Positions 32,798 to 58,831 of a stretch of DNA of 64,000 nucleotides are shown in pieces. The stretch comes from Lepraria neglecta. Lineage: Eukaryota > Ascomycota > Lecanoromycetes > Lecanorales > Stereocaulaceae. The notes under the pieces are model-generated. The model saw nothing but the letters and a program-made list of their open reading frames with translations, searched no databases and had not been told where the DNA came from. Within the stretch, counting starts at the first letter, position 1. Every line of letters begins with the position of its first letter. A program made the position numbers and the translations under genes. Location of the stretch: contig CM065652.1 in assembly GCA_033220425.1 (NCBI GenBank), positions 1,178,001 to 1,242,000 of the forward strand, written 5' to 3'.

Positions 32798-32799
32798 TA

Positions 32800-34624: not shown

Positions 34625-34626
34625 TA

Positions 34627-36041
34627 GTTAAAGACAGTGCTGACTAAGCATGACTAAGCAATTTCCAACACAGGTGTACACAGCTCTTTTCGCAGAATTC
34701 CATGTCGCGCTAGCAATTCTCTCCCGAGTATATGTTTATTTGTTTTTGTTCAAATCCCAAGAATGCTCGTTGTTACATGTTCCCACTAGGAGTCTAGAAG
34801 TGGCGATATGTTGCTGTATGAGTGCTTCAGGCTAACAGTTTTTGGGACTATGTTGTAATTGTCGTAATCGGCGCAGGCTGCGCCTTAACCACGACAGCGT
34901 TTCTGCCTTCCGAGTCCCCTTTCTTCGACTCCTCTTTCATCTGCATTGTTCAGCATAACGTCGGCTCGGCAATGAAACCTCGTTCACATTCAGATAAAGG
35001 CTTACGCCGGAATGGATCCATGCTCAGCAGTGAGAATGGTAAATGCAAAAGCAAAGCCACAAGTGAAGATGGGACCGATCTGAACGTGGACCCAGAACCA
35101 AATCCCAGTGAGAATTACACTGGTGAAAGGGTTAATAGAATGTCGAGCTGCCTAGAGACTATACAATAGATAACTTAATGTACATAATGCAATTACATAA
35201 GCATGGTTTATTGCTTTTACTGCATGTTCTCGTCTCTACTCAGCAATCGACGCACAAATTTTTGAGGCGACGAACCATTGGAGCGTGATCAAGACCAAGG
35301 ACGTCATCCTCAAGCCTGGAGTCTGGCAGTCACCTTAGCCTTTTCCAACCAGTTGGTGGACGCTTTGAGGTGGTAATTGCGTTTGAAAAGCCTAGGGTGG
35401 CCAGGAGTATCGTCAATTACTCTGGCTGGATGGCAAGACGGACCTTTGAGTTTGCCGAGAACATGTGGTCTCTATCTTCAAGGCAGAGCAGTACTGATAT
35501 TACTGGCCTGCTTGATCCTTTCCTTGCATGGGCTATTTATGTTTCAAGGCGATCTTGGAACAACGCCCGCAAGATTTTCAACCTTGTCGAGGAGATCGAA
35601 GCATGTCGGTGTGGAATTCCGTTCTGTTTCAATTGAGGGTGGCGGAAAGAAGCAAGATAGAGCCTACCAGGCCTTCTGATATACCAAAGAAGTTGCCAAA
35701 ATGTCGCCGTCCTGCTCCACCTTGTTCATTTTGCGCGTGTTCGTGCTCCATTTTCGAGCGATGCCGCTGCGTAAGTGAAGTCCCTGTACTCATAGTATTC
35801 TGCTAAGCACCCCGAACGCCGTTACCACCTTTAATGCTACTAGGGATTATGATCTCGAGCAACTTTGAGGCATCACCGGTATTAGAACAACATTTTTGCA
35901 AGCGTTGTTTACTCAAGTACTCAATTATTTGCAGCTCAGATCCTTTCGTCTGCTCATAAACGAATAGTAGATAGCGATTTAAGTGAGCATTGACATCAAA
36001 CATTAGAAATCACTTGTCAATGGTTTATTCGATTATTGAGA
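34627..36041. other. Decayed intergenic sequence
   Basis: Between 35220 and 35810 two overlapping plus frames of 88-100 codons occur, but neither has a start in context or a known domain. No repeat ends seen. Confidence 0.4.
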
Positions 36042-38161: not shown

Positions 38162-38615
38162 CTACTGATGAGACCCATTACCGCACTGACAATTATCGCA
38201 AGTGAGGTCTGAATTCTCCCCACACGCCTCGCCCAAAGGAGCGAAAGATGCAAACGCTTCGACACAACCATTATGGTAGCCTCCAGCAGCTATAAAATTC
38301 ATACCCTCAATATAATCGCTTCCAGAAGTCACGTGGACACACGCGCCAACGGTCATTGCAGATTATCTCTAGGAGGGCATCGGGGGTGTAGCCATCCGCG
38401 CTGACGAGTTTGAAGCTTTGGTACTTGTCTGGGCCGTCTGTGCCGTCGGCCGTGGCGCAGGGAGGTATGGCGCAGGTTTCTTGGGCATAGTCGGCGCAGT
38501 TGGTGTCTTGGTATAGGTTTAGGGCTATGCCTTTACAGTCTCGTGGGGTGAGAGCAATTGCGGATGCGTGGGCTGTGAGGAATAAGAGCGTTGCGTAGGC
38601 TGAGATGGTGATCAT
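38162..38615 (-). CDS. Small secreted cysteine-rich protein
   Basis: ATG at 38615 with a clear signal peptide (ITISAYATLLFLTAHASA), then a mature part rich in Cys (CKGIALNLYQDTNC, ETCAIPPC, ACGENSDLTCDNCQCGNG). A two-exon model, 38615-38351 and 38289-38162 with a 61-bp GT...ATAG intron, gives 130 aa, and the frame resumes at GGYHNGCVEAFASFAPLGEA. The donor GTTGGC is weak, and the segment inside the proposed intron also looks coding-like in the downstream frame, so the alternative is a single frame change. Spaced cysteines and a short secreted product are common for secreted proteins of plant- or host-associated fungi, but no specific role can be claimed. It lies in the gene-poor, transposon-rich island. 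Confidence 0.6.
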
Positions 38616-40262
38616 GTTGATTGATTTTTCGAATACCGATAAACTCTGTATCGCGGGTTTCAAAGAAAGAAGACGAAGATAGAATGGTTGGATTTCAGGC
38701 GGAGTCCGACTTACCGTTGACTGCGAGAGAAAGATTGCGAATTGCTTTCGAAATATTTGAGTTGGATGCTTGGTCTGGAGAAGACCATGGCAGAGCAAAC
38801 ACGATGGCTTTATACTTTCAAGTTCCCCCCTGACATGAAAAGTAATTTTGCCTCACACGGAGGCAATGAGAGTCTGCCTCGTAACGGGGCATACACATGG
38901 GGTGTGGGACTATGCAGCCATCCACATATCATGAAACTCGTGATAATAGCAGCAAGGATCCATAGCGATGGCCTCCGTCTCCTTTTCGTGAAGACTCGCC
39001 AGATGTGCGAGATTCGGATGAGAGATGATGAAAATATCGAGGCACAGCTCATAGTTAGGAGGAAGGCATACATCTTCTGAGACTTTGTAAGACTTCAGCG
39101 GCTGAGCCTTTGATGGCTAACATCAAACTTCTATTATAAACCTGCTACCGACCTGGAGTACATTCAACTTCTCCTTGTGCCCAATTGTAAAGCCGAGGGT
39201 AAGCAGGGGCTCCTTATAGCGACTCACGGATGCTCACCTCGTCTCGAAACGGGGATTTGGGCTAGAGTACCTTGGAAGCCTGTGACAAAGCGCAAGCACT
39301 GTTGCAAGGCTGATTGGTGCGAGTCCTGGTGATGCGTCGAACGACACCACCTGGAGAATTGATACCTACCATCCTCTCACAGGGGCATCCGCAGCCACCG
39401 ACCCCATTACACGGCCTACCCCTGTGACATTATTTCGGTTTTAGGATTTCAGACAGAGACAAATTGAGTATTCGTAGATTTGAACTGCGCCTCTAATTTT
39501 TAATGCATTTGGCTGACTTGCGGAGATGCTTAGTCTCTAATCATGCAGCAGCAACCGACAACACGTAGTTGCAAATGGCGTCGGAGACTCCGCGCGTCGT
39601 CAAAAGTCTTGCATAGCCAGGAATAGCACTGTGCTATGGCGTTGCAAGACGGTGTCACTCGCGCGGAGGCATGGGACCTCGAGCTGAGCACGCAGTATTA
39701 GCCAATGTTCAATATTGGAAAAGATGTACTCTTTCATACTAGAATCCATTGATTTTGGGCCACCAACCACGATGCGAACGCGCGTTGATCATACCACTCA
39801 AAGAACGAGTACGGTCCACGAGGCCTCGCACTCTGTTGGGTGACATGCATGTACAGCACACCTGAAGTTTTGTGGAGGCACAGTAGCTCGGGTTTGAAGA
39901 AGAAAAAGCAACCCCAAGGTTGAAGTTGAAACCAAACTTGTACATCGCTTCAGCATGGCTCCAGAGACATGAGACGTTGCCAGGATCTTGGGGAGCGGCT
40001 GAGACCAAGCCTTGAAATAAGCAGCATGTACTCCGAAGGCGCGCGGTAATAGGTGGAAAACCCCCCACACCCAAGCACGCTCGCTTAGGCCGTGGCCGTC
40101 CACGCGGGGACACAGCTCCCCTGAGAGGTCGCAGGAGGCATGGTTATTGATTACGATTTGTGTTAGACAGTTAGCGTTCGACGGGAGAAATTTCATAGTG
40201 GACCAATGATGTCTGGAGAGTGTGTAGAAGGGGGTTGAGGCCCCTCAATACCGCATGTGATA
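38616..40262. other. Intergenic, no supported gene
   Basis: A 132-codon minus frame at 39798-40196 begins with ATG but has no recognisable domain. Near 40225-40250 an imperfect partial copy of the adjacent MITE end is seen (TAGAAGGGGGTTGAGG). Confidence 0.4.
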
Positions 40263-41328: not shown

Positions 41329-41783
41329 TCAATGCTTTCCAAGGTTGCCTGCTACCATTGCTTCCTCCCAATTCTGTCCATCCCTAGACGTAATAGTAGC
41401 AGAGCGCACGTTATCCCGCTGCAGGCACCTGTAGTTGATGTTGTACCCTTCCGGAAAGCTCCTTGGTACTGTCAACGGAGAGATGCCACAGGTCTTGCAG
41501 AACCAGTGCTTTGCAGTCCCGGTGTTGAATGTGTATTCTTGCAGGTGCTCTTTGCCTTCGAGGGACTTGAGGGCATCTGCCTTGATGACGAGGCCGATGA
41601 AACCTAGGGGTGATGTCAGCAAGGCTCATGGCTTGATGGATTAGTCAAGACTGATATGTTACCTTTCATGGCGCAGATACTGCAATTACATTCGCTCATG
41701 TCCTTCAGATCAGGCGAGTGCATGATTGAGAATTTCACATTGCCGCAATGGCAGCCTCCTTTGTGGAAGACTTGTTCACCCAT
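41329..41783 (-). CDS. GFA-domain (glutathione-dependent formaldehyde-activating/CENP-V) protein
   Basis: Small zinc protein of the GFA/CENP-V fold, 131 aa. Two exons, 41783-41663 and 41603-41329, with a 59-bp intron. Zinc ligands are visible: KGGCHCGNVKF, ECNCSICAMKG in exon 1, and HWFCKTCGISPLTVPRSFPE in exon 2, followed by YNINYRCL and the typical end AMVAGNLGKH. The founding member was linked to formaldehyde detoxification, but most fungal members have no proven reaction, so the name is only a family label. It is divergent from the zinc-finger gene starting at 43587. A decayed copy lies at 49563-49800 in the second segment of the local duplication. Confidence 0.9.
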
Positions 41784-43586
41784 CTTGTGAACCAAAAAGT
41801 TGCGAGCATTCAGACGCAAGTAAGATGTGTCAGCCTCGCGAGTGACAGGAAACGCAGGAATGAGGCTCTTCGCAAGCTTATCCTCGGTGTGCTAAAGTGA
41901 CAGTTCGAGATGCATAGTGAATTATGTATTTTGTCATCACATCAAAATGAGTGGGCTGTTTGAGTCCTGCCGGCAGCTTTGAACACGAATCAGACCCCCC
42001 AGCTTTGGCAAGCATTATCGTCCGCTGATCCCTTAGATGCATGATGCACTATCGCTTCTGTGCTGAGGTAGGTGCGGGCCCTGCAATCATTGGCTCTAGA
42101 AAAGAGCTGCAAAAATGATCAAAACCTTTCGGGCTCACAACCTCCGCCATTCTAGGCCAGAGCGTTGTTTCATGCCCGAGTGCCCGAAATGACTATGCAG
42201 AAAGGTAGGCTGCGCCGCAGCGTTGCATCCAGCATTGCTATATAATTCATCATTTCGTCCTGCCCTTTCCTCAGAGCAACATGCTTCATTTCCAAATGCT
42301 TCAAACCAGAGTGGGGGCGCATAGCGCTTGAGCTTGGACGGAAGGTCTATGGTGGTTTTGTAAACCCCACATTTCAATGGATTTGCGCCCAAAACCAGTC
42401 TTCCTCGTCGGCAATCGCGACTATGCTCGTATTCAGCGTTGGCTAAAGTCCTTCGCCTCCGTGAGTTGATCTTTGTGCATGGTCACCTAGCAAAATTCCG
42501 CTCGCCGTATTTCGAGATGACAAGTTCAAGTTGGCGTGTTCTTAGGCTGGATTGGACCCTTGTTCAATGAATATCTACAAGACATCGAAGCCACATCTGT
42601 CATCTACGCCAAATTCGCCAGGGCTAGACGGACTTTGTCCGCCCCCGAAGGACTTACAAGGACCATTTCGACGTCCCCCAAGGTCTTTCTCATGCAGCTT
42701 ATGCCTTATTATGGCCAGTCTTCGAAAGTCCTCCCTACCTGAAAAGTTGCGCAAACTCGAACGGCGATGCCCGAAGGACTCGTGTGACGAACCTGCAGAT
42801 CACAAAGCACGCAAACCCCACTGCTGAACAACAGATCGTTCGCCTGCTTTCTTAGCCGGTTGCCTTCTTTTCCCATCTCTTGAAGATTGACGCTCCTATC
42901 AAAGCTATACTTATTTGAGCCTCAAAGTCTAGATCGGTCATGGAGACAAGTCCATTGGCGGCGCTCGGTCTGTCCGCCATCCACACAGAAGTCCTACCAA
43001 AGATCGCCAACTGCCATTACCTTCTACATTCTCATACAGATGGGGCGTTCATCCGTCACCCGCGCCGGGGTCAAGGTCGCCTGTTATGCGGCCGCCTGTT
43101 TAAGCATAAAATGGGGTCAATGGGGTAGTTCTGGCCCCCAGTTGGCCAATTGGATGCAGATTCTTCCGAGTTTGATGCAACATCTCCTCTTCCTGAAATT
43201 ATGCAAGACCGTACCGTTAATCCCGTCTCGGAAAATTCAGGGCTCCGAATCGTCAGATCTCCAAGATTTGGCAATGATCGCCTATCTCGAATGCTGTCAA
43301 GGTGTCAAGGAAGCCCCAGACCCAAAAGTCCTCCCAACATGGGCGCATTTCTAACCCCGCCTGCATACGAGTGGTCTCCGCCGATAACATGTTGGACTTT
43401 CTCGAGTCCTGACAGCGTGATTTACTGGCCAGTCGCAAGTCAGGATCTGATCAGGAGGTGCGGTGGAATGCATTGACTATTCAAGTTAAAAAAGGCCGGC
43501 ATTCCAGATTCTTTGATGACTTTGTTAACCCAAATATTTCCGTGGAATACTGCCAAAGGCACAGAACTTTCCCTTTAATACTTACA
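41784..43586. other. Divergent region, duplicated upstream of both zinc-finger genes
   Basis: Short frames only. Parts have counterparts upstream of the second zinc-finger gene: 42060-42110 resembles about 51635-51695 (shared core ATTGGCTCTA), and 42825-42905 resembles about 52360-52440 (shared ATCGTTCGCCT and TTGCCTTCTT). This supports a common ancestral promoter region. Confidence 0.6.
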
Positions 43587-46500
43587 ATGTGCGGGACCAA
43601 CGACCACATCTTTGTTCGGGGAGTGCCTTGCGCGTGAGTGTCTAGCATTAACGCCCATGGTGATGCCTCTTGATAACCCTTACATTGTAGCTTGAAACCA
43701 TACTTCCATCAACATTCTGGCGACAGAGCCTTGGGCGTCGTATCTCCATATGCTTGTGAGGTAAATTTTCAAGATTGGGTCAAATCCTTTCGCCAGAGTT
43801 CGCCGGACATCGAAATGGAAGAGCTCGTGATGTGCCCTATGCTATGGTGTCGTAAAAGCTTTGAGAACCCCTCATCTGTCGAGGACCATGTTCGCAGGTG
43901 TGATCGACTCTCGGATGGGTGGTACTGGTGTCCCATTTGCAGGCGTCCCGAGCGGTTTCTAGAGTGTGACAAGTCTTGTGAAATGGGTCAACGGCCTGTC
44001 TTGCAGAGGAAAAGGTCGAAATTGCACCGTGCTGCCTCCTTTTTCAACTATTTTGGCCGCAAACAGTCGTCGAGGAAAGCCATGTGTATGTTATCTGCTA
44101 CCAATATGAAAACCCAATGTATTGAATCTGACACCTGACAGTGAAGAGAAGTGTGACCGGGGATGAAGTCGACCTAGAGATGGGTAGCGTCATTGCCGAG
44201 GGATTGGGGAAGGAAGAGCTGGACGCAGGGCCAGATTGCCAGATGTTCGGGCTCGACCTAGCCGAAGCCAACCCGTCCAAGGCAGTAAAGCCAGGTCTAT
44301 TAGTAGATGAGAAGGATCTGTACCATTCTAAGACCAACAATGACCTGATGCTTACGACAGCACCTACTGGTCCACTAACCAACCCCCAGTCACAAAGGAT
44401 CACTGTGAGGTCGCTTCACGAGATGTACGATCCGTCCGCATACTCGTCGCAGAATCTTCAAGAAGTGGACCCCTCCTTCAAACAAGAAGAAGAAGAAGTC
44501 GCCTGCTTATCCGGAAGGAGTGAATTGTTGCCACCCGATCGCAGTTACACCAGCGCAGAACTACCTAGTAGCCGTATGACGACTACTTCTTTACCGAAAC
44601 TAGACAGCAGTTTTGTACTCATGGCTTCAAACTCCTCAGAACCAGCTGAAACATATCCCCGGTTTACAATGGATTCTGATACTCTAGCTGGAGTGGTATC
44701 CCTGGTTGACGACGAACATCACGGAGCCCTAATGGATAGTACTTTGGGCCTCGGGTTTGTATCTCCAGTCTCTGATCGCGTCTCCTTGACCTCACCTACC
44801 AGTACACTCATTGGACAGGCTACTTCGCCAGGAGATATCGCTAGCCTGTGGAGACTAAGTAGTCCACCAGATCCTCTCCTAATACCGAAACAGCTGCATC
44901 TAAAGACAGATGCTAATTCTTTAACGGCCTTGACCACATCAAGTGATCCGTCCATCAATAGGCATATCAGCCTTTTCTATGCTGGCCACGAACACTTATC
45001 CGAGTATATGTCTTTGGACCCTTTCAACATCAGTGCGGGGATGTCACCAAGCACTCGTGGTTCAACTTGGAGTTCTTCCCCAGTACCAACGCAGACTCAG
45101 GTCGAGGAGCTTCGAGATTTGGTGAAAATAGTCAATTCCGAGTGGATGCAGAGACTATCGTCGGCTACTGAACTCTACACTCACTGTTCCAGACTCTCTG
45201 CACAAAAACTATTTGATAACGGTACCAGGAGTCTAGAATCGTTGTTTTGCGGCAACCTTCCCAGGAATTTTGAGGATGTCTTCGCTCTGATGCACGTTGC
45301 CTTTGCCGCTGCCTACGTTCTACACAAGGAGCATGCATCGTATGACTGGAGCGACTTTTTCCAAGATGCGCTCCAGTTTCACCTTGCGCTGTCTAGCAAG
45401 AGTGACAGAGATTCCTTCTTGGGAGTCATGGATCGTTGGTGGCTACCACCCGAGCTTTCACTGAGGTCTTCACTCGTCATAAAATTCGGCCCAGTGGTTG
45501 GCCACATGTCACAAGAATCTACGATTGGTATGCACCAGATGGAGTTGGTAAAATTGCTCAAGAATGGTGAAGTCGCTCGAAACTGTTCGGACTTCCTTGA
45601 TGGTCAGTCATTCTCGCGGATTATCGTCCGTACAAGTTATCTAATTGAGATCTCAGGTTTCGAGGAAGCTGGCATTATGGAAAGGAATGCCCACTTCCTG
45701 CCAGGTGCACTGATTTCTAATGCCCAGGGTAGAGAGCCCATTGTTGAGCATATGATCAACGAGATCATCTATCCACTTCAACAGCAAAGAGGGATCGAAG
45801 CACTACGTGACCAAGTGTCGGACGCTGAGGCTCAATTACATAATGGTTTGCTCCGAAACCCGCGTGAAGTTGAGGTTGTGTTGATATCAAGCGGCAAGGT
45901 AAGCAAAAGCTGGAGCACGTCTTGCTTTATTAACCAACGAAGGATTTTAGCGCAACTCGAAATCCCCTCATATTTACGAGAAGTATCACGAATGCATTAC
46001 CAGTCTGTGCGATACGGCTATGGCGCCTTCCGATCCATCCTGGAACCAGGAAAGCTCGTGGACCTCGGAAACCGCCTGGCGTGATCGCTTTTACATTGCA
46101 GACCTCCACGGGATCCTGGCAGTATCACTCGAACTTGACAAATCCCATAGCGCCGAACCTTCCACCAATCATTGGCCCAATACCAGTGTACTGGCAGTTA
46201 TTCGACCTGATCAGACACTGCTAGAGTCACCTACCTCGTTAAGCTCGAGGAGTAGTGGGAACAGCACCAACTCGTCGCCGACAAGCCTTACGTCTCTGGA
46301 CTCGGCGATGAGCTTATCAGGTGATACCCTTGCTAGCTCGCTCACCTCGCCTACGGCTACATCCCAGAGTTCTATATCACCAACCTCGCCTACGTTCCCG
46401 ACACCAAATGCGGAAATTGCATATTGCCAGCTGTGCCCTGCAACATTTAGAGGTACGCCTCAACACCGCAGGTCAAACCTGCAACGCCACATGCGGACTT

Positions 46501-46706
46501 TCAAGAAACATAGTGGCTTTGCTGGCTTCAAATGTCCTGAGCCGGGGTGTAACTCGACGCTCATGCGGACAGATAACTTGGGCAAACATCTGCAGACTAT
46601 GCATGGGCTGTCGTCGCCAATTGAGAAAAATGACGCAATTAGAAGGAGCAGACACATGTCAAATCATGACTTGCCCTTTCCGTTGGAGACGTTTCTCTTG
46701 GATTGA
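43587..46706 (+). CDS. Zinc-finger-like protein, paralogue A (unknown function)
   Basis: Exons 43587-43633, 43691-44085, 44142-45602, 45657-45898 and 45951-46706 give about 966 aa; if the 54-bp fourth intron is retained the frame stays open and adds 18 aa. An N-terminal zinc motif is visible (C64-x4-C69-x12-H82-x3-C86), then WYWCPICRRPERFLECDKSC. Residues 130-440 are Ser/Pro-rich and probably disordered. A conserved helical domain follows (VEELRDLVKIVNSEWMQRL, FEDVFALMHVAFAAAYVLH, DRWW). The C-terminus has two C2H2-type fingers (CQLCPATF...H and CPEPGCNSTLMRTDNLGKH). The layout suggests a nuclear DNA-binding protein. I recall similar unnamed multi-copy proteins in ascomycetes; no function is known to me. 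Its paralogue is at 53131-56383. Confidence 0.87.
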
Positions 46707-47653
46707 ACATGATACCGGTATTATGGCTTATTGCTCTTGCCTATTTGGTTTTTATTTGGAAGCCTTTGGCTTCTTCATACTCATTTGGCAGGCCTTAAGG
46801 TCTACCCTTGACTTTCTATTCTTTAACGCTCAGGCATGCCATCCTATATACGCTTATCTAATATTATGATGATGACAAATGGCCTGAAGTATGCAATTCA
46901 TATTTTCAAGTACGTAATTACCCTCATTAGGTCTTTCTCTCTGGAAGATGAGAGCCGTAAAATCCGCGATGTGCTGTTGACGGTATTATTTGGATACACA
47001 ATCTCCGAAGAGCGCATTCTTGCACGCGGGAAGTGAGTGGCTGTCGTGATATAGACGTAGCCATGGCCTGCCGCAGGAGTTGAGGCGACAAAGGTTTGCT
47101 GCAGGCGGACTTAACTGACTGCCTCAAGCAGTGCTATCGAGCTAAATGCAGGTCCCCGTCCAACGAAAACATGAGAATTCGGCCATCAGGACTATCAGGT
47201 GTGATGGCTAGTGGGGATAGTAGGACTCAGCATCCTGGAATCAAGCCAACGACTATTCCGCATGCGACGGACTCTAGCTCTAGGCGCAGGACGCTGGCCT
47301 AGGTCAGCCTTCGGCAGGACGATACATCTGAAAGTATCCGTTTTGACCTTGCGGATTAGGTAGAAGACACCAGGTTGGGGAGAGGGCAAGAGTCAGCTTA
47401 CAAAATGCTCAAGAAGCCCAGACTTATTGCAATAGCAAGACTTTCAGATCCATTCATATACGCATAGCTTTCGATCACGAATAGTTCCGAGTCTAAATCT
47501 CTCGCTACAATCACCAACCGGTGTATTCGCTCTCGAGAGGCTTGTATCCTAGGAAGGCTCAGACGTCTAGCTCCATCAGACGGACACAAGGCTGGAGAGC
47601 GGCTCGAAGACCCTTGACCTCCCTCTTAACCTAAGCCACAATCCAGATCAACC
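46707..47653. other. Intergenic between the duplicated pair (copy A)
   Basis: Short frames on both strands (for example 47096-47302 plus), no domain recognised. The counterpart in copy B is longer (56384-57709). Confidence 0.45.
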
Positions 47654-47906
47654 ATGCCGTGAGTCTCCATTGTTCCTATACCCTCATCTTCTCAGCTCAT
47701 TGACAATGTTCTATCACAGATCTCAGCACACAGCAAACGAAATCTCTCAACAAACCGGTCCTCTCAAGCCTCAATTAGATAGATGGGCCAAGAAGAAGGA
47801 GAAGCATGAGCAGGTTGCCGTAGGAGAGAAGATCTCGCGATCGGAGAAGAGGATGAAAGCATGGCTTGATGATAAGGAGCAACGATTTGAGGGGAGAAGG
47901 AATTAA
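47654..47906 (+). CDS. 63-aa basic protein, paralogue A, five-base first exon
   Basis: Exon 1 is only ATGCC (47654-47658); a 61-bp GTGAGT...CACAG intron leads to exon 2 (47720-47906). The product starts MPSQHTANEISQQTGPLKPQ and continues WAKKKEKHEQVAVGEK, ending EGRRN. It is strongly charged and probably one long helix, with no signal peptide or membrane segment. The copy at 57710-57960 has the same exon split, the same exon 2 length (187 nt) and the conserved core KKKEKHEQVAVGEK, so both are likely real genes under constraint. No family is known to me. A role with the neighbouring zinc-finger protein is suggested only by co-duplication. Confidence 0.8.
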
Positions 47907-48273
47907 ATAAAGCTTGTGATCTCGGTGACGAAATTCCCGGATATTTTTTTATGGAGGAAAGGTACTACGCTCTCGGCTTCAATTTTCTCATGAAAGGCCT
48001 CCTTTCCACTCAATGAGAACTGAAAGTTTAAAATTTTCCGGTGGAAGTCTTAATTTCACATATCTTTCAAATGCGCATAAGTCGAACAAGATAGAGTGCT
48101 CTAATTTTCTTAACTAATTGGCATATGATCTTGCGCCTGCACTAATTGAGAATTAAGCTATCGCTAGGCGAATCCAAAATCAGCGTCATGGTTGAGCGCA
48201 CATATGATATTCGGCAATCTGATGATCTTTGATTCGTCTCGTAGAGACTGAAATTGGTTCAAGATTTACTCTC

Positions 48274-49007
48274 ATGACCATAACCCAGCCTTACACGCCC
48301 AAAGCCCGCAGTCTCCTCCACGAATTCCCCCCAGACATTCTCCTCGTCATAACCGAACATCTCGATACAGTCCCCACAATCTGTCTCCGAACCACCAGCA
48401 AATAATTTCACAACTCAATTCCACTCGACAACTCCCATATCAACAAATGCGTGAAATAGCGTGTCCACTGCTTCTTAGTACAAGACCGTCAAACCAGTAC
48501 CCATTACATCACGTGCGCACTATGCAAGAAATTGCGCCACGAAAGATGTTTCAGTCCGAGGCATGCCCGGACCCTTGACAACCTCGCAAGAAAAGGCATC
48601 AGAACGGTTTTTGCCTACGCGTATACTAGGCCAGTTCCCATAGCTACAACAGTACAGTATCCTCCATCTAGACGTCGAAATAATTGGCGGGAGAGCCGAA
48701 AGCCCTGCTTTACTACACTCATGTTGTGACCATATTCTAGATCAACCGGAACTTGCACCCATCTTCGTACATTTGGAGCCGTTTATCAAAACGGCCAACA
48801 AACCATTCTGGCTATCTTTCGCCGTGAATCGCTGCACGCATTGCTGGGAGTGTGCTTTTAAACGAGCGGAAGAATGCTGCTACTGGTGTTTTTACAATAT
48901 CTGCCCCGTGGTTTCTTGCAGGCAGTATTAGAGGCAGCCTTAGGATATGGGGGCACGGCGAAGGAGGCGGCACCCGGACGATATCACGAATCTCATGTAT
49001 GACTAGA
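48274..49007 (+). pseudogene. F-box gene relic, paralogue of 30425-31435
   Basis: Reads FPPDILLVITEHLDTVPTIC, then FHNSIPLDNSHINKC, ITCALCKKLRHERCF and, in another frame, CDHILDQPELAPIFVHLEPF, FAVNRCTHCWECAFKRAEEC and CYWCFYNICP. These match the F-box and Cys-rich parts of the minus-strand gene at 30425-31435 in the same order. In-frame stops (TAA after RTTSK, TAG after NKCVK, two near the end) and at least one frame change make it a host pseudogene. The TAG after NKCVK fits a former Trp codon, as in C-to-T decay. Confidence 0.82.
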
Positions 49008-49562
49008 GCCAATGGTGTAATTGAGCTCGTATATTTTGCCTTTATTTACCTAATACACTTCTTCTATCGAAGGCATTCACTTACGGGAGCTTCATCGATT
49101 GCTTGTAGGATAGGGTAATAAAGATCAATAGTTCACTCTTAGGATCAGGAACATCACAATAGAATCTAAGAAATAGAGGTTGCTAGATCGTGACTTTCAC
49201 AACTTCTCTTTCTATAGAGCTCAGAAATCTCATCGAGCGGAAGTGCTAGGAATTCAAAGCCATTGATTATGACACATTTCAATAAGCATGCTCCCTTCTT
49301 CGCCAGAAGCCTCGCTTTCCGCTATAATGACCCTCAATGTACGTGAGAGAGCCAAACTTGCAACGGACGGCAGTATTTACAAGTTCGATACTAGTAGCAA
49401 GACATATAAGGTAGTCGAAATTAGGCATTCAGGGCAAATCAGAGCATAGATCATAGAAATGAGTCAGAAGGAAGGAGTGAAGTTGCGATAATTCGGTTGA
49501 AGGCCGAGTAGAGATTGTAGCGATTTTGTTAGAACGAGCCACTGGGTTTTGTACCAGTTTGT
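49008..49562. other. Intergenic between F-box relic and duplication copy B
   Basis: Stop-rich, no domain or repeat end recognised. Confidence 0.45.
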
Positions 49563-49800
49563 TTAATACTTGCCGAGCTTACCACCTACCGCCATAGATT
49601 CCTCCAAGTACTACCAATCCCTAGCCGTAATAGTACTAGTAGAACGTATATTATCTTATAAACACCGGTAATTAGTATTATATCCCTTTAAAAATTTCTT
49701 AATATAATTAATAAGAAAACATCATAATATAAGAGATCTTTAGGTAGAACTTTGTCTCTAAAAGCGCCGAATTTATAGAAAAAATTGGTATTTGATATAA
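49563..49800 (-). pseudogene. AT-rich relic of the GFA gene
   Basis: On the minus strand the 3' end still reads AMAVGGKLGKY and stop, the typical GFA ending (AMVAGNLGKH in the intact copy). Plus-strand text CCCTAG(C/A)CGTAATAGTA and its surroundings match 41375-41400 of the intact gene. Further in, nearly every difference replaces G or C by A or T, until the similarity fades into AT-rich DNA by about 49800. The 5' half is not recognisable; the Tc1-type element begins about 140 bp further on. Confidence 0.72.
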
Positions 49801-49940
49801 TTTCAATCTATATGTGAGTTGTAACCGCATTTATTGGTCGATGCTATCAATCGGCCAACCCCCGCTGTCCGTATAGGTAGAACGGTAGCGAGGAGCGATG
49901 ATGAGCCCCTAAGGCCCCTTAAAGTAGGCATGAGCCAATA

Positions 49941-51264
49941 GGTGACATAAGTCATTGGGCCTCCAAGGTTTACCCGGGCGAGCATATATATATTTGATAT
50001 CTGGTCTAAAATCTACCATAAATTGCTTCTAACGGCTCTACCACCGTTCCGGGCGACTTCCCGGCACCTAGCAGGCATCTCAGCGATCCTCCGGCGTACC
50101 TTATCTACAGGAATAGCGGCCTATTCCTCCCTAAGAGCTGCCTTAAGCTCCTCTATCGTCTAGGGGCGCTTTCGGCGGCGTATACGCCGTTTTAGAATCG
50201 CCCAAAGACCCTCGATAGGGTTTAGATCTGGCGGATGCGCGGGGTGCTTTAGGGTTGTTATCCAGTTAGCTTCGCGTAGCTTATTAGCGGCTCCTTCGGG
50301 CCCTGAGCGGTCGCCGTAGCTGGGGTCGTTGTCTTCTTGGAGGATTATTAAAGCCTCTATACTCCGGTAACGTTAACCGGAGGCGCTCAATCTCAGTAAT
50401 TAGACCCGGGAGAATCTTTTCGATATAATATATTTACGTTATCGAGTTCCCTTTAGGCTTAATATCTAGGTTATATAGTAGGAGCTCTTTCGACTCTTCC
50501 AGGCGCTGTTTATACTATTCCGGCGTCTTAGTCTTAGGCCGCCGGCGCGGTTTCGGGGGTAGTATTAGCTTAATCGTTAGGGGGTCGTTTTCTATAATAC
50601 CAGGAGCAGCTAGCTGAAAAGTGGACTATAACCCCCGAAAGCTCGGGGTGTATCTATATATTATCGGCGTCAAAACGGGTGCCTAGCTCCCGGAGAACTC
50701 GCTGTTTTGGCTGCTTATCCGGGTTATAATGAGTCTTATCGCTAAAAGAAATATACTACTAGAAGCTCTAGAAGTCCTGGAGCGCATTATCTATGTTCCC
50801 GGCGATTTTTCTTACTAATAGGTCGACCCTGCGCTATAACGTATATCCCAGCGTGCTTTTTTCTATTTCAGAGGGCTCGTTATAGGGTCCGGAGACAATA
50901 AGCTAAGTGGAAAAAGTCGATTTGGTGCTCGAGGCGTTCCAGGGCTTCGTCCCCAATCTTGAATGGGCTCCCAGGACGTTGTTTTCCAGTGCGCCTAGTA
51001 CCTAGGGAGCCCCTTTGCTTGCGTAGTTGCGGCCAGTAATAAGCTGTAGACCGGTAGACATTCTCGGCGTCAAAGACGTCCTTGAGCTTTGATACACCCC
51101 GGGTATCAACCGCGTGGTAGAACTTCGCTTTCCGGCGTGTAGTCGCCTTATTTCTATGCTTTATAGCCCTCTGGGGGGCCCTTGGGGAGTAGTGTATGGC
51201 TATAAGGAATGGAATTAGTTGGCGGTGAAGAATTCAGTGGGGCACTCCAATGACTTTTGTCACC
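49941..51264 (-). mobile_element. Tc1/mariner-type DNA transposon, degenerate
   Basis: Inverted ends GGTGACATAAGTCATTGG (49941) and the complement of CCAATGACTTTTGTCACC (ending 51264) match at all but one position. TA precedes the left end; the right flank has no clean TA, so that border is uncertain by a few bases. The minus strand encodes a decayed transposase with FSDKTHYNPDKQPKQRV (first Asp), ILQEDNDPSYGDRSG (second Asp) and HPPDLNPIEGLWAILKRRIR (Glu), the DDE signature with Tc1-type spacing. Later segments read TIEELKAALREE and VRRRIAEMPARCREVARNGG, separated by stops that fit former Gln or Trp codons. Not autonomous. The element sits inside copy B of the duplication and is absent from copy A. 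Confidence 0.88.
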
Positions 51265-53130
51265 CTGTTGGGGGCGACCAGGTTTAGAGCTCTTCGGCGA
51301 GAGAAGTGGAGGGAATTCTTCTAGCCCGACTCGGCAAGCGCAATGCGCATCACGTGGCTTAGCGCCCTGTTATTATTGACAGCAACTTCCGTTGCCTCGA
51401 CATGCAATCATGCCTAACGCATGGGTACTAATGCAGTGTCAGAGCTCAATTATACTCTCTGTGTGGCCAGTGTGTGCTGGACATCTCCAGTATACTCTGG
51501 AAAACGCAATGAGAAAGCTCGGGTAAGTCTTAGAGAGCTAAACACGCCACCTGGCAAAAGTTTTCGCGTGAAAAACGGATCGTCGAGGCGATGTGTTGTC
51601 GAGTTGCTGAAGAAGTGATGGCGCCATTCCTGAAGTAGATGCGGGACCTATACTCATTGGCTCTAAGCAGAAGTCCGAGAGAGGCAATGATGCCTATCGG
51701 GCATGGAAACTTGCCAGCGCTGCCTCGAGAGCGATCCTTAGGAATCCAGACGGAATGGAAGAAAAAGGGCTGCGACGCGCATCGTTATAATATTGTCATG
51801 TCTTCTTTTTTCCATTCACTAAGGGTGTAGGCCAGTGGCCGAACAACTTTGCATTTGCACAGTCACTGAGCCAGGAGACCATCAAGCTTGTGGAAAGTCT
51901 GTCTGCCTACTTTGTGACCCCCACCTTTCGATCAATCTGCAATCTGAAGCCCGATCCCCGGCTCGCAACATCGCACCCTCATCTTCTGAGATGGCCGTCC
52001 AAGTCCTTCCATGGCGAGTGAGCGTTGGGCCGACTAAATCTGGCCCATTGGCCTCGGGGCAGCACTTACCTGGCGATGTCCATCCTGCATATCTGGGTCA
52101 GTCCTTTCAACGTTCTAAAATCGCTGCCTTCATGCACGCTAATGCTGTCAGGAATAGCGGGGTTTTTTCGGGCGTCATGGACCTTGCAAGGACCTAGCTC
52201 ACTCCAACCGATGCCACTCCCATCGACTCTCTACCTAGATACCATCAGTCCTGCCATAGTCCTGATCAACACGGCTGGTACCATGCACTGAGCGAGAATT
52301 CAAGAAGGACTTGGTGATGGGCCTGCAGACTAGCAAGCCGCATGAGATACACGTCGACTCGGACTATGAACAACGCATCGTTCGCCTTTTTCTTAGCCAT
52401 TTGCCTTCTTCCCCACACCGCAACTGGCCCTCCTATCGAAAACACCTCGTCAGCTAGGTCTAACACGTGAGGCCTAGATCCGGTCGTTGATCTGAGACCG
52501 TGGGTTGCAGGAGGTCCGTCATCGAGTGCCGGATCGCGGCCATGGGTCGCAAAAGGCACAAGAGAGACCGCTGGGCCGCATAGAATGGCTACACAAGGGC
52601 CTGGCTGGGGCTTTCCTAGGGTGAGGTTATATGCATGGGGTCTCAGATTGGGTCGCTAGGTCGCGGCCTTGGCTGAAAACAAGAGTTGGTCCACAGGGGA
52701 AGGACCTTGCTGAATTGTCCAATCGACGCACCTCCGAGCTCGAGTCAACTTCTGTTCACTCATGCGATCATGCAGAACCGCATTGGCTACGACTGTCTAG
52801 CTATCTGCACTCCTTCTGCCAGTCGTCCCTACGGGCTATCGACATTGTCGCTTATCTCTGTGGCCATCATAGCACCACGAAAGTCCTGGACCGCAAGGTC
52901 CTTACACTACGAATGCATCGTCTTCATTCTTGCATATGAGGGGCTGCGACCAATGATACGATATGCCTAGAGCCGTTGCTGCAGCACTGTTAGCCGTCCA
53001 TCGACCCTCGTCGCAATTGTCTGCCGTGGCCTGCCTGACCTTAAAAGGTCCGCATTGCAGCAGATCAAGATACACACCAACCTGGAGAATATTGCAAAAA
53101 ACCCGGAGTGCATTCCTCCTGGCTCTTGTG
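51265..53130. other. Upstream region of zinc-finger gene B
   Basis: Short frames without domains. Homologous in patches to 41784-43586 upstream of paralogue A, with similar distances to the start codon (for example ATTGGCTCTA about 1.5 kb upstream in both). Confidence 0.55.
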
Positions 53131-56100
53131 ATGTGCGGGACCAACAATCCTATTGCTACCCGTGGGGTGCCTTGCGCGTGCGTGTACAATAATAACTTCT
53201 ATCACGATAATCAAACTGATCGTTACGTTCTAGTCTGAAACATAACCTTCATGAAGGTTCCAACCGAAAAGCTCTTGGTGCTTTGTCTCCACACGGATGC
53301 CAGTGGAACTTCCTAGACTGGGTTTCGAACTTTCGTCCTTTCGACTCGAACGTACAAGAAGAAGAGAAGTCAATGTGTCCCATGCTATGGTGCCGCGAAA
53401 ACTTCGAGAGCAGCGCCCTAACCGAACATCATGTCTTCCAATGCCCTTGCCTATCCAACGGGTGGTATTGGTGCCCGTACTGCAAACGGCCGGAACGTTT
53501 CCTGAAATGTGATAAAGGCTGCGAGTTTGTCAAACAGCCTAGGTTGCACAGGAAGACATCTGGGTTACATCGGGCTGTTGCATTCTTCAATTACTTTGGA
53601 AGGAGGCGCTCTTGGCGCATCGCGGCAGGTTGGTTATCCGCCTCGCGCCTAATCTGGACGTTCACTTACGAAAGACAGCGAGAGCAAAGGCGGAGGGAGA
53701 AGATGTGTCACCAGACATATCAACCCTTCAAGGCTTCACGAAGGGAGAGCTTGCCACGGGCTCCAGCAAACAGAGACATGAGATGACAGGTTCGGATCCT
53801 CGTCCGAAGCCATATGTTCCTGTGGGAGGGTGGGTGGACGAGCAAGCGAAATATCCTGGAGATCGATCGAATAGGGCCGAGGTGGAAGGCGGCGATATCT
53901 CCACTGCAGAGCTGGGTCCATCGCAAAGATTCCAAACGCAGGGATTTCAGGAGATGTACGACGCGTCGGCGCCATCAGCCCACCCCGAAGAGCTTCCAGG
54001 GTCTCTGCCGCGGAGGTCTATTGGCTCTGGCTCCACAATGGTGGATGATGAATATTCACTGCCCGCACATATATCACAGCTTGGAAAGGGCCATTGCCCA
54101 TCAATGTGCAAGACTGAGCAAGGCACCTCGCAAGACCAGCCAGTATCATTCAGCCCCGTCAGACATGGTGGCCACATACCATCGTTCAGCGAATACCTCG
54201 GGCAGAAACACTATTCGAACAGAGAGAGCCGCTCCAAGAGACGGCTGACATACTTTCCCAACGGGTCCGAGACCAGCTTTGAGACGACGTGTAGTGAGGA
54301 TGGAGCAGAGCTTCGACCGGCCCGTAGGGCATTGTTGACTCAAGACCCGAATCTTCCTGGCAAGGAATGCTCTAGCAGCGGCTGGGATGTTTCTCACCTG
54401 GCCGCAATGGAGCATGGACCAGCCTTCATGACTCCGGAAACTTCTCCGCTTGAGAATCTTTACGGTAAATCATCTACAGGGTACGGCAATCCCGCCGGTG
54501 TACTTTCACCAATGAACTCCGATTACTCCGAAGGCCCAAGGACGATTTCTCCGCTGTCCAGGCTTCTGTCTCCACTATCGAGCACTGTCTCGCCTGCTTC
54601 AGTGACTCGGACTTCTCCCATTACAGAGAATGTTATCTGTCAAGACATGCTCACTGTCGACGAGGTCATTTCGGATAGCCAAGCCGAGCTACCATTCATG
54701 CAAAGCAGCCACCCCGGCATCAGCCATTGGTATTCAGCCAATACTTCTCAGCGAGCGACATCTGCCTGTCGCCCTCATGGCCCTGCTGACAGCAAGACTA
54801 AAGGGTTTAATGCAGCATTAACTCCGTCCACCGATACTGTTGTGTTCGATGAACACTCTGCACCATCTCAGACACAGATCGAGGAATTGCGGGATCTGGT
54901 GGAAATTGTAAACGAGGAATGGCTACAGAGGCTGAACTCGGACCAGGAACTTTGGTTGCGATGTTCTAAGCTGTCCGTGCACGATTTATTCGAGAACGGT
55001 ATCAAGACTCTGAAACAGTTCTTCTGCGGCAGCCTTGTAAAAGATTTTGACGAAGTATTTGCGTTGATGCATGTAGCCCTTGCGTCAGCGTACATCTTGC
55101 ATAGGGACGATGACGAACCATACAGATGGACTATGTTCATACAGGATGCACTTCAGTGGCAGCTTGCTTTATCAGACAAGAACGACAAGGCTTTGTTTGT
55201 TAAGGTCATGGCTCGTTGGTGGTGGCAGATTGGGGTCTTATCGAGCTCGCTACCAAGTCCCATGCTACACCCAGTGATTGTAGATACGTTCCCAGGGAAA
55301 GATACCAGCCAAAGTCGGCTGCTGGACGTGCTTAGAAGCGGCAAGATTATTGGAGATTGCATGGGCTTCCTAGAAGGTAAATCACCTATTGTCAATAAGC
55401 TGAGAACTTCGTCTAACAGGTTTTCAGGATTTGGCGAAGCAAATATCGTTGAAAGGAACCAACACATATCGCCTGCTGAGCTGACCTCGTACGTCCGGAG
55501 CCCCATTGGGATTGAAAGGACCAAGCATATGATCAAATCAATTACGAAGCCCCTCCAAGAGAAAAGAGGCATTGAAGCACTCCGCCGCAATATGCTAGAC
55601 GCCGAATTTAAATTATGCAGTGGACTACTGTACTGTCCCCGTGAGTTGGAAATTACATTGATTTCAAGTGGCAGGGTAAGTCTAGAATTCGTAATAGCCT
55701 TTTAAAACGCCACTAATAGGATACAGTGGAGCTCTCAATCCCGCCAAGTCTTCGAGAGATACTACAAAACCGTAACTAGTCTTTGTGACAAAGCAATGGA
55801 ATCTTCAGAGCCATCTTGGCGTAATCCTTACTATGTCACGGATCTGGACAACGTTTTAGCGCTATACTTAGAGCTAAACAAGCGCCAGCAAATCGGCTCT
55901 TCTCCAAATCATTGGCCAAATACTAGTGTTTTTGCACTGCTTCGATCACCTCCGCCAATTGCCCAGTCGACCGAATCTTTGGTCTCCAACAGTCATGGAA
56001 GTAATCACGGTGCCTCGCCAGCAAGTGGTATGTCACAGGTGTTGGTGAATAATTCAGCCCCGCCGTCTGAAATTGCGTCCCAAGGCTTGACTTTCCCTCC

Positions 56101-56383
56101 TCCCATTGCCTTGCCCACCTCGGTATCGGAAGTTGAATACTGCCGGCCATGTTCAAAAGCATTCAAGGGCACTCCCCAGAATCGCAAGTCGAACTTCCGC
56201 CGTCACCTCAAAACATCTCGAAAACACAACAAGGACGCAGTATACATCTGCCCCAAGCCAGGTTGCAATTCAAAGCACAAGCGCACGGATAATTTGAACA
56301 AACATCTCCAGGCAGCACATGAGATGCTGTCAAAGTCAGAGCGACGGCAGGCTATCGGAGCTAGCAAGCGCATGGTCAGCTAG
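53131..56383 (+). CDS. Zinc-finger-like protein, paralogue B (unknown function)
   Basis: Exons 53131-53177, 53234-53628, 53679-55376, 55428-55675 and 55727-56383 give about 1014 aa; the 51-bp fourth intron is open in frame and would add 17 aa if retained. Exons 1 and 2 have the same lengths (47 and 395 nt) as in paralogue A. The same architecture is seen: N-terminal zinc motif (CPMLWCRENFESSALTEHHV), WYWCPYCKRPERFLKCDKGC, a long disordered Ser/Pro part, helical domain (IEELRDLVEIVNEEWLQRL, FDEVFALMHVALASAYILH), FGEANIVERN, EKRGIEALRRNMLDAEFKL, and two C-terminal C2H2-type fingers (YCRPCSKAF and CPKPGCNSKHKRTDNLNKH). The start MCGTN is identical to A. The acceptor of intron 2 (53678) is the least certain site. 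Open over more than 3 kb, so probably functional. Confidence 0.87.
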
Positions 56384-57709
56384 GACTTGGCCACGACAGG
56401 TGATACGTGGGTTCAACAAGGAAGGTTGATAGCCTGGTTCTTATTTATTTCTGTTGTCTCCTGCGAAGTAGCCGGCTGCTATCTATTCTTTTCGCGGGGC
56501 TCAATGGCACTCGCTGGATGATCTCTTTGCGTATTGGTATGCTAGTAACCATCTGACCTTAATGAATTGACGAAAATGATCTACTCAAATCTTTGCAATC
56601 AAGGGTGCCTAAAATCAGAGATCTTTATCCTGAGATCACATAATTCGTGTCTCTCAACAGCCTACCACTCTCAGAACTCGATTGCCAGAGGGCATCCGCG
56701 AATACTTTCACGTTATGTAGGAACACATCTACGCAGACGAGGAATCTTAACTCTACAACCACACTGGCGCAGGAATAACCGGCCGCAGGACTTCACGCGA
56801 GCCATTAAAATGATGGCTCTAACACCATTGCTTGATTGCGAAGCCAATTTAAGATGGTTCTCCGTGATACTGACAGCGAAGAGGGCCAGAGCGGCCGGTT
56901 GAGCTTTCCCATATTGGCCTGCAGGACCGCCATGCGCTGCAAATAACATTGTGGCTTGCAGGACTTTCCAACCCGGTGAAAAGAAGGAGCATTACGACTC
57001 CGTACGAGAACAATTTTAGAGTTACGCATAGAAGGACTACAGTGGCTTTCAATAAGGACACTGCCATGACTGTATCCAGAGGTCCAGGACTCGGCTGGCT
57101 TGAGAAGGACCTGGCAATGGACATATAAGATGGCCGCCGATCATCACTCAAGGCCATTCTTGCAACCCATCCGCAGCTAGAAGCCACAAACCCCGAGCGG
57201 CCGCATTTAAGTACTTGACCCAGCCCCAGATCCACGAGACCTCATTCCAAACCCTCGAGACCCTGTTTCCTCAACAACATTATAGAGTAAGTGACATCCA
57301 GCTCCAGTGTACCGTATATTACAGTCAGGCTGTAAGCAACTAGAAAAAGACGCTACCATCTAGCTTGCCACCGATTGGTGTTCACGGCTTCCTGCGGTCA
57401 TTGGTCACAACATGGACTTTTCAGCTGTCATTATAATGCAGTTCTTATATTTCTGGTGACTCTTATACTGACCCTTGACACCTGACTTCAGACTCGGTTT
57501 CTTAAAACGTCTTTCAGACCTACTTGCGTATTTGGACGGCTATCGATCGTTCCAGCACCATTGAAGCAGAACCTTCCTTAAGGCTGTACAGGGAAATATT
57601 CTTATTATCCCCTCCAACAGCGTACTTGCCTATATCCTAGACACTTGAGATCCAAACGGACCCAACGACAAGATCAAACAACAATCGCACCATTGATTGA
57701 CTATCAATT
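56384..57709. other. Intergenic between the duplicated pair (copy B), coding-like pieces
   Basis: A plus-strand series between about 56840 and 57250 reads protein-like segments (for example LRTRTILELRIEGLQWLSIR) interrupted by stops. No domain is recognised; it may be an old relic. Confidence 0.4.
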
Positions 57710-57960
57710 ATGCCGTCAGTCCCCCGTCTCCCATATTACAGCATACACGTTTACTAACACGCCTATATCGCAGATCTGAATACACCAAAGACGAGACATC
57801 CCGACGAGCTGGACAGGTCAAGCCTCAGTTGAACGAATGGGTCAAGAAGAAAGAGAAGCATGAGCAGGTTGCTGTTGGGGAGAAGACGTCGCGGTCGAAA
57901 AAGAATATGAAGGCGTTTGTTGATGATAAAGGGCGGAGGATTGAGGGAAGAAGGGACTAG
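57710..57960 (+). CDS. 63-aa basic protein, paralogue B, five-base first exon
   Basis: Exon 1 ATGCC (57710-57714), 59-bp intron ending CGCAG, exon 2 57774-57960. It starts MPSEYTKDETSRRAGQVKPQ, continues WVKKKEKHEQVAVGEK and ends GRRIEGRRD. It aligns without gaps over 63 residues with paralogue A at 47654-47906; differences are mostly conservative while the KKKEKHEQVAVGEK core is unchanged. The intron sequence is not conserved, although its position is, which argues that the coding sequence is under selection. Highly charged and probably helical; function unknown. Confidence 0.8.
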
Positions 57961-58831
57961 AGCAGTTGGTGAATTAGGTGGAGTTGGTGGACTGATGACG
58001 GGGTAAGGACACCCTCATGTTTTGAGCAATTAGAGTGTGGGCGGCGAGACAGCGTCATTATTAGATTCGCTTTACTACCTAATCTCTTTCACCATTCAAT
58101 GACATTGAATAAATCTGCATCTAGACACACGTGCATAATGAGGGTGCCTATCCTTAGGAATTACAACATTCTAGATCCTAATGAGCGAATAGGGTCCACT
58201 CTGAGGAGAAATCAAAGCTGGTAGAGTGTCGAATATTTAAAATCGAGAGTGTGGACTATATCAAAGTTTGGGCTTCGGCCTTAAAAGTTTGCTATTTCGA
58301 GTCTCATTAAGCGGAAAGCAGAGTATTTAAGGAAGTTTGAAACCGAGAAATGCTACTACAAGTCTTTGTTCATGATTTAGGAGCTGCATCCTTCCATTCT
58401 CAAGTCTTTTTGAACGAAGGAAACGGAACTTCAGCTCCTGCGGAAGCTGGGAAAAATTGAGTGCATAGGACTGTGAGCACAAAATGTATATCGTTTAGGG
58501 ACTCAGCGCTTACAACTTTCAAGATCTTAGGTCTTTTTGAGCGAGCAAATTGGGCCTAACAGAAGCTGTAAGATACAGAAGACGGAAGCAATGAGAGCAT
58601 CAAAGAGGCGGAGATCAGGGCTGTTATCCTAGAGTCCGAACAACGTCCTCGATGAGTCAAGTTCCTCTATTCAAGCTCTAGGCGCAAGTTCCTTGCAAGA
58701 ATTGAGGATGTTCAGACTAGAACCCTTCTGATGAGCTGTTGTGCAAAGTGGATGGGCCTCAGCCAATCCCCGAGTATCAAGCCTTCATAATTAATTCAAC
58801 ATCTTCAATCAAACGTTACCCCATCTTCTAG
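57961..58831. other. AT-rich intergenic, no gene seen
   Basis: Stop-rich in all frames, with weak internal repetition of short motifs (for example AGGTCTTTTTGAGCGA-like and AAGTCTTTTTGAACGA-like words around 58403 and 58530). Confidence 0.45.

What the first reader, a model, noticed from the sequence alone, without database searches (positions are those of the whole stretch)
41329..57960. Three-gene segmental duplication (GFA, zinc-finger protein, 63-aa protein) dated by a transposon
The order GFA(-), zinc-finger protein(+), 63-aa protein(+) occurs twice. Seen directly: matching protein sequences, identical lengths of the first two zinc-finger exons (47 and 395 nt), same intron positions, and upstream patches at equal distances. 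The GFA-to-zinc-finger spacing differs by about 1310 bp, close to the size of the 1324-bp Tc1-type element present only in copy B, so the insertion came after the duplication. Two genes of the unit stayed open in both copies while GFA decayed in one, which suggests the pair may act as a unit.
Basis: partly seen in the sequence, partly recalled or inferred. Interest (0 to 1): 0.8.

Follow-up and report, generated by a model that had tools for sequence, protein, structure and literature searches.

The report
Ancient duplicated fungal zinc-finger gene block
A fungal chromosome carries an old side-by-side copy of a three-gene block (an enzyme gene, a zinc-finger gene and a tiny gene); two of the genes and parts of the DNA in front of the zinc-finger gene survived in both copies, while a jumping gene most likely landed in the third gene of one copy, which is now a wreck.

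Summary
Blocks A (41329-47906) and B (49565-57960) are colinear: GFA(-), zinc-finger gene(+), 63-aa gene(+), with shared intron positions. New here: (1) the duplication is very old: zinc-finger synonymous sites are about saturated (4-fold sites 46/174 identical; same codon at 126/362 identical residues, 115.4 expected). (2) Yet patches of upstream non-coding DNA still align (71/135 identical without gaps; maximum 61 in 181 random pairs). Tests for coding or RNA found little, so conserved control DNA is likely. (3) AGTCCT/AGGACT is clustered upstream of both zinc-finger genes (7 and 6) and also upstream of the 63-aa genes (2 and 4; 6 together reached in 4 of 2000 shuffles), a test prompted by a dense stretch seen. 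(4) The Tc1-type element maps by both flanks into GFA exon 1, codon 28-29, and probably broke GFA B, whose remnant shows a C-to-T excess. The element is a lower bound, much younger than the duplication. Whether the two surviving genes travel together in other fungi could not be tested: no fungal genomes were searchable.

The parts
41329..41783 (-). GFA A, intact, 131 aa; exon 1 41663-41783, exon 2 41329-41603
   Evidence: model; Pfam GFA 54.4 bits, cutoff 24.3, run on a draft splice that differs by a few residues at the exon junction
42035..42098 (.). Conserved patch 0, aligned with 51602-51665 (47/63 identical)
42600..42903 (.). Conserved patch 1, aligned with 52130-52440 (194/294 in a gapped alignment of 16 blocks); includes a 45-column stretch at 86.7%
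43142..43374 (.). Conserved patch 2, aligned with 52715-52943 (135/226); ungapped block 43214-43348 71/135
42000..43586 (.). Upstream region of zinc-finger A with 7 AGTCCT/AGGACT sites
43587..46706 (+). Zinc-finger gene A, exons 43587-43633, 43691-44085, 44142-45898, 45951-46706; 984 aa
46707..47653 (.). Upstream region of 63-aa gene A with 2 AGTCCT/AGGACT sites (47188, 47222)
47654..47906 (+). 63-aa gene A, exons 47654-47658 and 47720-47906
49565..49688 (-). GFA B remnant (3' part only, in-frame stops)
49941..51264 (-). Tc1-type element, 18-nt terminal inverted repeats, transposase reading frames full of stops, RIP-like composition; no clear TA duplication
51602..51665 (.). Patch 0 in copy B
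52130..52440 (.). Patch 1 in copy B
52715..52943 (.). Patch 2 in copy B
51500..53130 (.). Upstream region of zinc-finger B with 6 AGTCCT/AGGACT sites
53131..56383 (+). Zinc-finger gene B, exons 53131-53177, 53234-53628, 53679-55675, 55727-56383; 1031 aa
56384..57709 (.). Upstream region of 63-aa gene B with 4 AGTCCT/AGGACT sites
57710..57960 (+). 63-aa gene B, exons 57710-57714 and 57774-57960

Best explanation
An ancient tandem duplication copied a block of roughly 6.6 kb (GFA, zinc-finger gene, 63-aa gene) in what looks like a filamentous ascomycete. Both zinc-finger genes and both 63-aa genes stayed intact (shown; purifying selection inferred). Stretches of the region upstream of the zinc-finger gene stayed recognisable although synonymous sites were erased, so they are most likely a conserved control region (inferred). 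GFA B stayed functional for most of that time (inferred from what its remnant still shares with GFA A), then a Tc1-type element inserted in its first exon (site inferred from spacing on both flanks); the remnant carries a C-to-T bias (shown) that resembles repeat-induced point mutation (inferred). Most likely working of the surviving pair: the zinc-finger protein is a nuclear DNA-binding regulator, and AGTCCT-type sites upstream of itself and of the 63-aa gene place both genes under one regulator, perhaps the zinc-finger protein itself (inferred; I give this last step about 0.3).
For: Colinearity, intron positions, spacing. Saturation: 4-fold 46/174 identical; same codon at 126 of 362 identical residues against 115.4 expected. 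Patches above all shuffles and random pairs. No 3-base periodicity in the three patches (p 0.56, 0.11, 0.90); no hit between reading frames of 40 aa or more inside the patches at E 1e-3; no Rfam match in 41900-43700 at E 0.1 nor in the window at gathering scores; folding of 6 pieces of patches 1 and 2, + strand only, z -1.05 to 0.91. Motif: 7, 6, 2, 4 sites, reached in 0, 0, 104 and 3 of 1000 shuffles; C at the second base after the core in 13/19 block sites against 4/23 outside (p 0.0014). Insertion site A 41702 from the left and 41698 from the right, inside exon 1 41663-41783. GFA B: 38/81 C or G changed to T or A against 9/50 in reverse (p 0.0008). 63-aa pair: dN/dS 0.14 (NG86) or 0.38 (YN00). 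Cys/His pairs conserved in both zinc-finger copies.
Against: Two copies from one genome, no outgroup. dN/dS of the zinc-finger pair could not be computed (dS undefined by NG86, YN00 failed). In the central part of the zinc-finger gene same-codon use is above expectation (48 of 121 against 38.3) and in the 63-aa gene 22 of 38 against 13.6-16.3, so saturation is not perfect everywhere. The motif was picked from all 6-mers; 7 of 1653 window pairs hold some 6-mer that frequent, and 2 A sites align exactly with B sites, so A and B are not independent. The 63-aa test was prompted by a dense window at 56301 seen; upstream of 63-aa A alone the count is ordinary (104 of 1000). In patch 0 an aligned reverse-strand ATG opens peptides that agree in 6 of the first 9 residues, so a short upstream peptide of GFA is not excluded there. 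CpA preference of the GFA B changes is only suggestive (15/24 against 23/57, one-sided p 0.057), and the RIP index forms no gradient: high at 49451-49900, negative at 49751-50050, not raised on the right flank. No zinc-finger model passes Pfam's cutoff in copy A (zf-BED 20.4, cutoff 20.6).
Confidence: 0.72

Rival explanations
1. The two zinc-finger genes are older than the block: the upstream region (and GFA, 63-aa) was copied between them later by gene conversion or a second duplication.
For: Flanks look less diverged than zinc-finger synonymous sites: 63-aa third positions 36/63 identical against 319/918 (p 0.0006; counts worked back from the percentages); 63-aa same-codon use 22/38 against 13.6-16.3 expected.
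Against: Upstream identity is patchy (45 columns at 86.7%; other 50-bp bins at 15-25 identical), which fits constraint better than uniform recent copying. At conserved K/E/Q codons the 63-aa and zinc-finger pairs do not differ (11/16 against 29/48, p 0.77).
Confidence: 0.15
2. The upstream patches are an unrecognised gene, a short upstream peptide or a structured RNA rather than control DNA.
For: They are conserved like functional sequence. Patch 1 ends in a pyrimidine stretch plus TAG that could be a splice acceptor of a leader exon (read by eye). In patch 0 aligned reverse-strand ATGs open peptides with 6 of 9 first residues shared; one forward ATG in patch 2 is also aligned, with dissimilar peptides.
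Against: No periodicity; no shared frame of 40 aa or more in the patches; of 8 aligned ATGs other than the gene's own (1 forward, 7 reverse) only the patch 0 one opens clearly similar peptides (judged by eye); no Rfam family; folding no better than shuffles for 6 pieces of patches 1 and 2.
Confidence: 0.15
3. The zinc-finger and 63-aa genes are unrelated neighbours, carried together only because the duplication was tandem; the shared motif is chance or a general motif of this genome.
For: One duplication event cannot show linkage. The motif count upstream of 63-aa A alone is ordinary (104 of 1000 shuffles), and the test was not blind.
Against: 6 sites upstream of the two 63-aa genes, reached in 4 of 2000 shuffles; 0 of 858 windows outside the block reach 6, maximum 3.
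Confidence: 0.45
4. GFA B died by ordinary AT-biased decay, not RIP, and the element inserted into an already dead gene.
For: CpA preference p 0.057 only; no gradient of the RIP index.
Against: 38 changes of C/G to T/A against 9 the other way; the element next to it has RIP-like indices up to 1.39.
Confidence: 0.4

Closest known systems
RIP leakage into single-copy genes beside degenerated transposons (Leptosphaeria maculans AvrLm6 region, PMC2973834; passages seen)
   Same: A gene beside a RIP-degraded repeat gains C-to-T changes and stop codons; the passages name affected regions less than 342 bp from a repeat and cite leakage to at least 930 bp in Neurospora.
   Different: Here one member of an old paralogue pair is hit, the element appears to lie inside the gene, and only one flank shows the bias, without a gradient.
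Tc1/mariner-type DNA transposon
   Same: Size, short terminal inverted repeats, DDE_3 transposase fragment.
   Different: Dead copy with many stops; no target-site duplication recognised.
C2H2/BED-type fungal zinc-finger proteins
   Same: C-terminal C-x2-C/H-H and C-x4-C/H-H pairs in both copies; zf-BED passes the cutoff in B; weak PDB profile matches to AEBP2 and YY1 fingers (E 0.012-0.013).
   Different: An N-terminal Cys/His region and a central conserved stretch match no Pfam family above cutoff.
Cis-regulatory conservation in ascomycetes (PMC526180; passages seen)
   Same: Regulatory motifs can outlive alignability of upstream regions.
   Different: There, conservation is described beyond the range in which non-coding regions can be aligned; here paralogues with saturated synonymous sites still align in patches.

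Membership tests
Tandem segmental duplication | Several genes plus non-coding DNA in the same order, orientation and spacing | tested here: met
Tandem segmental duplication | Single event of one age, against an outgroup tree | not testable with these tools
   no fungal genomes searchable, and four empty scans of prokaryote/virus collections
GFA (PF04828) | Pfam match above cutoff | tested here: met
   (54.4 bits, cutoff 24.3; draft splice of copy A)
C2H2/BED zinc-finger protein | Pfam zinc-finger model above curated cutoff | tested here: inconclusive
   zf-BED 21.9 in B and 20.4 in A (cutoff 20.6); zf-C2H2 13.3 and 11.8 in two exons of A (cutoff 25.2), not listed for B
C2H2/BED zinc-finger protein | Paired Cys and His ligands conserved between copies | tested here: met
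   invariant columns
Transcription factor | Sequence-specific DNA binding | not testable with these tools
   needs an experiment
Tc1/mariner transposon | Terminal inverted repeats and DDE transposase | tested here: met
   (DDE_3 31.8 bits, cutoff 28.6)
Tc1/mariner transposon | TA target-site duplication | tested here: not met
   flanks read by eye; TA on the left side only; ends may be worn
RIP | C-to-T excess, preferentially at CpA, in repeated DNA | tested here: inconclusive
   excess met, CpA preference one-sided p 0.057; index positive in most of the element; that the element is repeated in the genome could not be checked

The most novel reading that the evidence does not exclude
The zinc-finger gene and the 63-aa gene form a self-regulating two-gene cassette, tied together by shared AGTCCT-type sites upstream of both genes, duplicated once long ago and maintained in both copies with its control region, in a kind of fungal protein for which Pfam gave no family beyond weak zinc-finger matches.
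Probability: 0.25. Interest if true: 0.55.

Novelty: new member of a known kind. Interest (0 to 1): 0.4.

Why it matters
Old duplicates whose upstream DNA outlasts their synonymous sites are useful: the two copies act as a natural alignment that marks likely control elements without other genomes. Here that gives a concrete candidate motif and two genes to test, including a 63-aa gene that annotation could easily miss because its first exon is 5 nt. It also illustrates how a transposon may end one member of a block while its neighbours persist.

Tried and rejected
Relatives: four scans found none (genome contigs; viral contigs), and no genome of the window is held. These collections hold prokaryotes and viruses, so this says nothing about fungi. 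Structure: AlphaFold on the central zinc-finger stretch gave mean pLDDT 43.7 and on 61 residues of 63-aa protein B 64.5, mainly one long helix; too weak, so no fold search was run. PDB sequence search: nothing for the 63-aa protein at E 10; for the zinc-finger protein 29 sequences at E up to 1, the best being weak finger matches. Coding or RNA origin of the patches: little support, except the patch 0 peptide named under rivals. Motif in print: a full-text search for AAGTCCT with motif and fung gave 144 papers, 10 listed, no listed title naming this motif; none was opened. Literature on the gene family, duplicates and paralogue promoters: listings only, apart from passages of PMC2973834 and PMC526180. 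An F-box gene as a fourth block member was considered and dropped: one copy lies about 10 kb before GFA A in the other orientation.

Full report
Setting. The window looks like nuclear DNA of a filamentous ascomycete (inference): spliced genes with introns of 50-61 nt, an H+-ATPase whose two PDB matches at E below 1e-100 are plasma membrane ATPases (that these are the yeast and Neurospora enzymes is recalled), a NOP9 gene and a pyridoxal decarboxylase, and transposons with RIP-like composition. The species is not known, and no genome is held.

Observation. A DNA self-comparison finds three A/B pairs. A more permissive one finds six direct pairs at E up to 0.005, all in colinear order: GFA 41331-41450/49565-49688, 42600-42900/52130-52437, 43142-43380/52715-52948, zinc-finger 43545-44056/53087-53599 and 45085-46676/54862-56392, and the 63-aa gene 47647-47927/57703-57980. 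Gene models give four-exon zinc-finger genes with three shared intron positions and two-exon 63-aa genes, all intact. GFA A is a two-exon gene of 131 codons. GFA B is a 3' remnant with stops.

Age. Over 918 aligned codons the zinc-finger proteins share 382 residues; third positions are 34.7% identical and 4-fold sites 46/174, close to the 25% expected from base composition. Among 362 identical residues other than M and W, 126 use the same codon against 115.4 expected from independent codon usage; by part, 26 of 77 against 26.9 (N-terminal), 48 of 121 against 38.3 (central), 29 of 89 against 28.0 (exon 4). Synonymous sites are thus nearly erased, with a slight excess in the centre. The 63-aa genes look less diverged: third positions 36/63, NG86 dS 1.5, same codon 22 of 38 against 13.6-16.3 expected. 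They are rich in lysine and glutamate with biased codons, and at conserved K/E/Q codons they do not differ from the zinc-finger genes (11/16 against 29/48).

Upstream DNA. Against this background intergenic DNA should be unalignable, and much of it is: the stretch between patches 1 and 2 (38 of 200 shuffles as good), between the zinc-finger and 63-aa genes (19 of 200), and after the 63-aa genes in direct orientation (118 of 200). Three patches between GFA and the zinc-finger gene are not: 47/63, 194/294 and 135/226 identical in local alignments, with 0 of 200 shuffles reaching any. Gapped local alignments inflate identity, so the fair figure is the ungapped block 43214-43348: 71/135, against a maximum of 61 in 181 random 700-bp pairs, and against 46/174 at 4-fold sites (p 3.5e-6). 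Patch spacing is nearly kept (starts 988 and 1001 bp, and 445 and 416 bp, before the ATGs). The patches show no codon periodicity, no shared frame of 40 aa or more, no Rfam match and, for six pieces of patches 1 and 2 on the + strand, ordinary folding. Of eight aligned ATGs besides the gene's own, one forward and seven reverse, seven open dissimilar or very short peptides; the reverse one in patch 0 opens peptides that share 6 of their first 9 residues (judged by eye), so a short upstream peptide of GFA remains possible there. For patches 1 and 2 conserved control DNA is the simplest reading.

Motif. A comparison of 6-mers in the two upstream regions singles out AGGACT/AGTCCT (6 and 5 in about 1.09 kb each). 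It is the only 6-mer with at least 5 in both, but 7 of 1653 pairs of window stretches hold some 6-mer that frequent. In the wider upstream regions there are 7 and 6 sites; 0 of 1000 shuffles reach either. The 63-aa upstream regions did not serve to choose the motif, but I tested them after a density list showed five sites in a window from 56301, so the test was not blind. They hold 2 and 4, together 6, reached in 4 of 2000 shuffles; separately 104 and 3 of 1000; no window of the same total length outside the block holds more than 3 (858 windows). The second base after the core is C in 13/19 block sites and 4/23 outside (p 0.0014). The longer form AGTCCT.C occurs 18 times in the window, 13 of them in these four regions, though this form was chosen after seeing all the sites. 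Two A sites align exactly with B sites, so the copies are not independent. This is a lead for shared regulation, not proof.

Transposon. The element 49941-51264 has 18-nt inverted ends, a DDE_3 fragment, and stops in all three frames of its coding strand. Counting from the GFA anchor on the left it maps to A 41702, and from patch 0 on the right to A 41698; both lie in GFA exon 1, 41663-41783. GFA exon 1 sequence right of the element was not recognised (no GFA match there; best local match is patch 0), so the site is inferred from spacing. GFA A is intact across the site. GFA B has 38 changes of C/G to T/A out of 81 such sites against 9 of 50 in reverse (p 0.0008); the two larger patches show 49/267 against 63/275. 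CpA preference is weak (15/24 against 23/57, one-sided p 0.057) and the RIP index forms no clean gradient. RIP leakage from a neighbouring repeat is known (PMC2973834, passages).

What it does. The zinc-finger proteins have conserved Cys/His pairs at both ends and weak similarity to known fingers. A DNA-binding role is likely by resemblance; specificity and targets are unknown. The 63-aa protein is highly charged and predicted, at low confidence, as mainly one long helix; it matches no Pfam family above cutoff (best E 0.037, below cutoff) and no PDB chain.

Verdict. The kind of event is known; the alignable upstream region between nearly saturated paralogues is the less usual part.

Noticed in passing
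30599-31459 (-) and 48290-48937 (+): An F-box gene, or its two adjoining reading frames (F-box 21.1 bits, cutoff 20.5), has a degraded relative with in-frame stops just downstream of 63-aa gene A.
   Followed up: partly
47971-48062 and 58257-58348: A 93-column inverted match lies downstream of both 63-aa genes, in opposite orientations (score 27, maximum 14 in 500 shuffles); perhaps a short dispersed repeat.
   Followed up: partly
32790-34635: A DDE_1 (pogo-type, name recalled) transposase fragment at 33292-33831 (88.8 bits) lies between inverted repeats near 32790-32855 and 34587-34635, with RIP-like composition in two of the 500-bp bins.
   Followed up: no
38307-38852 (-): ORF that by eye has a possible signal peptide and several cysteines; no Pfam match at E 0.01.
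   Followed up: no
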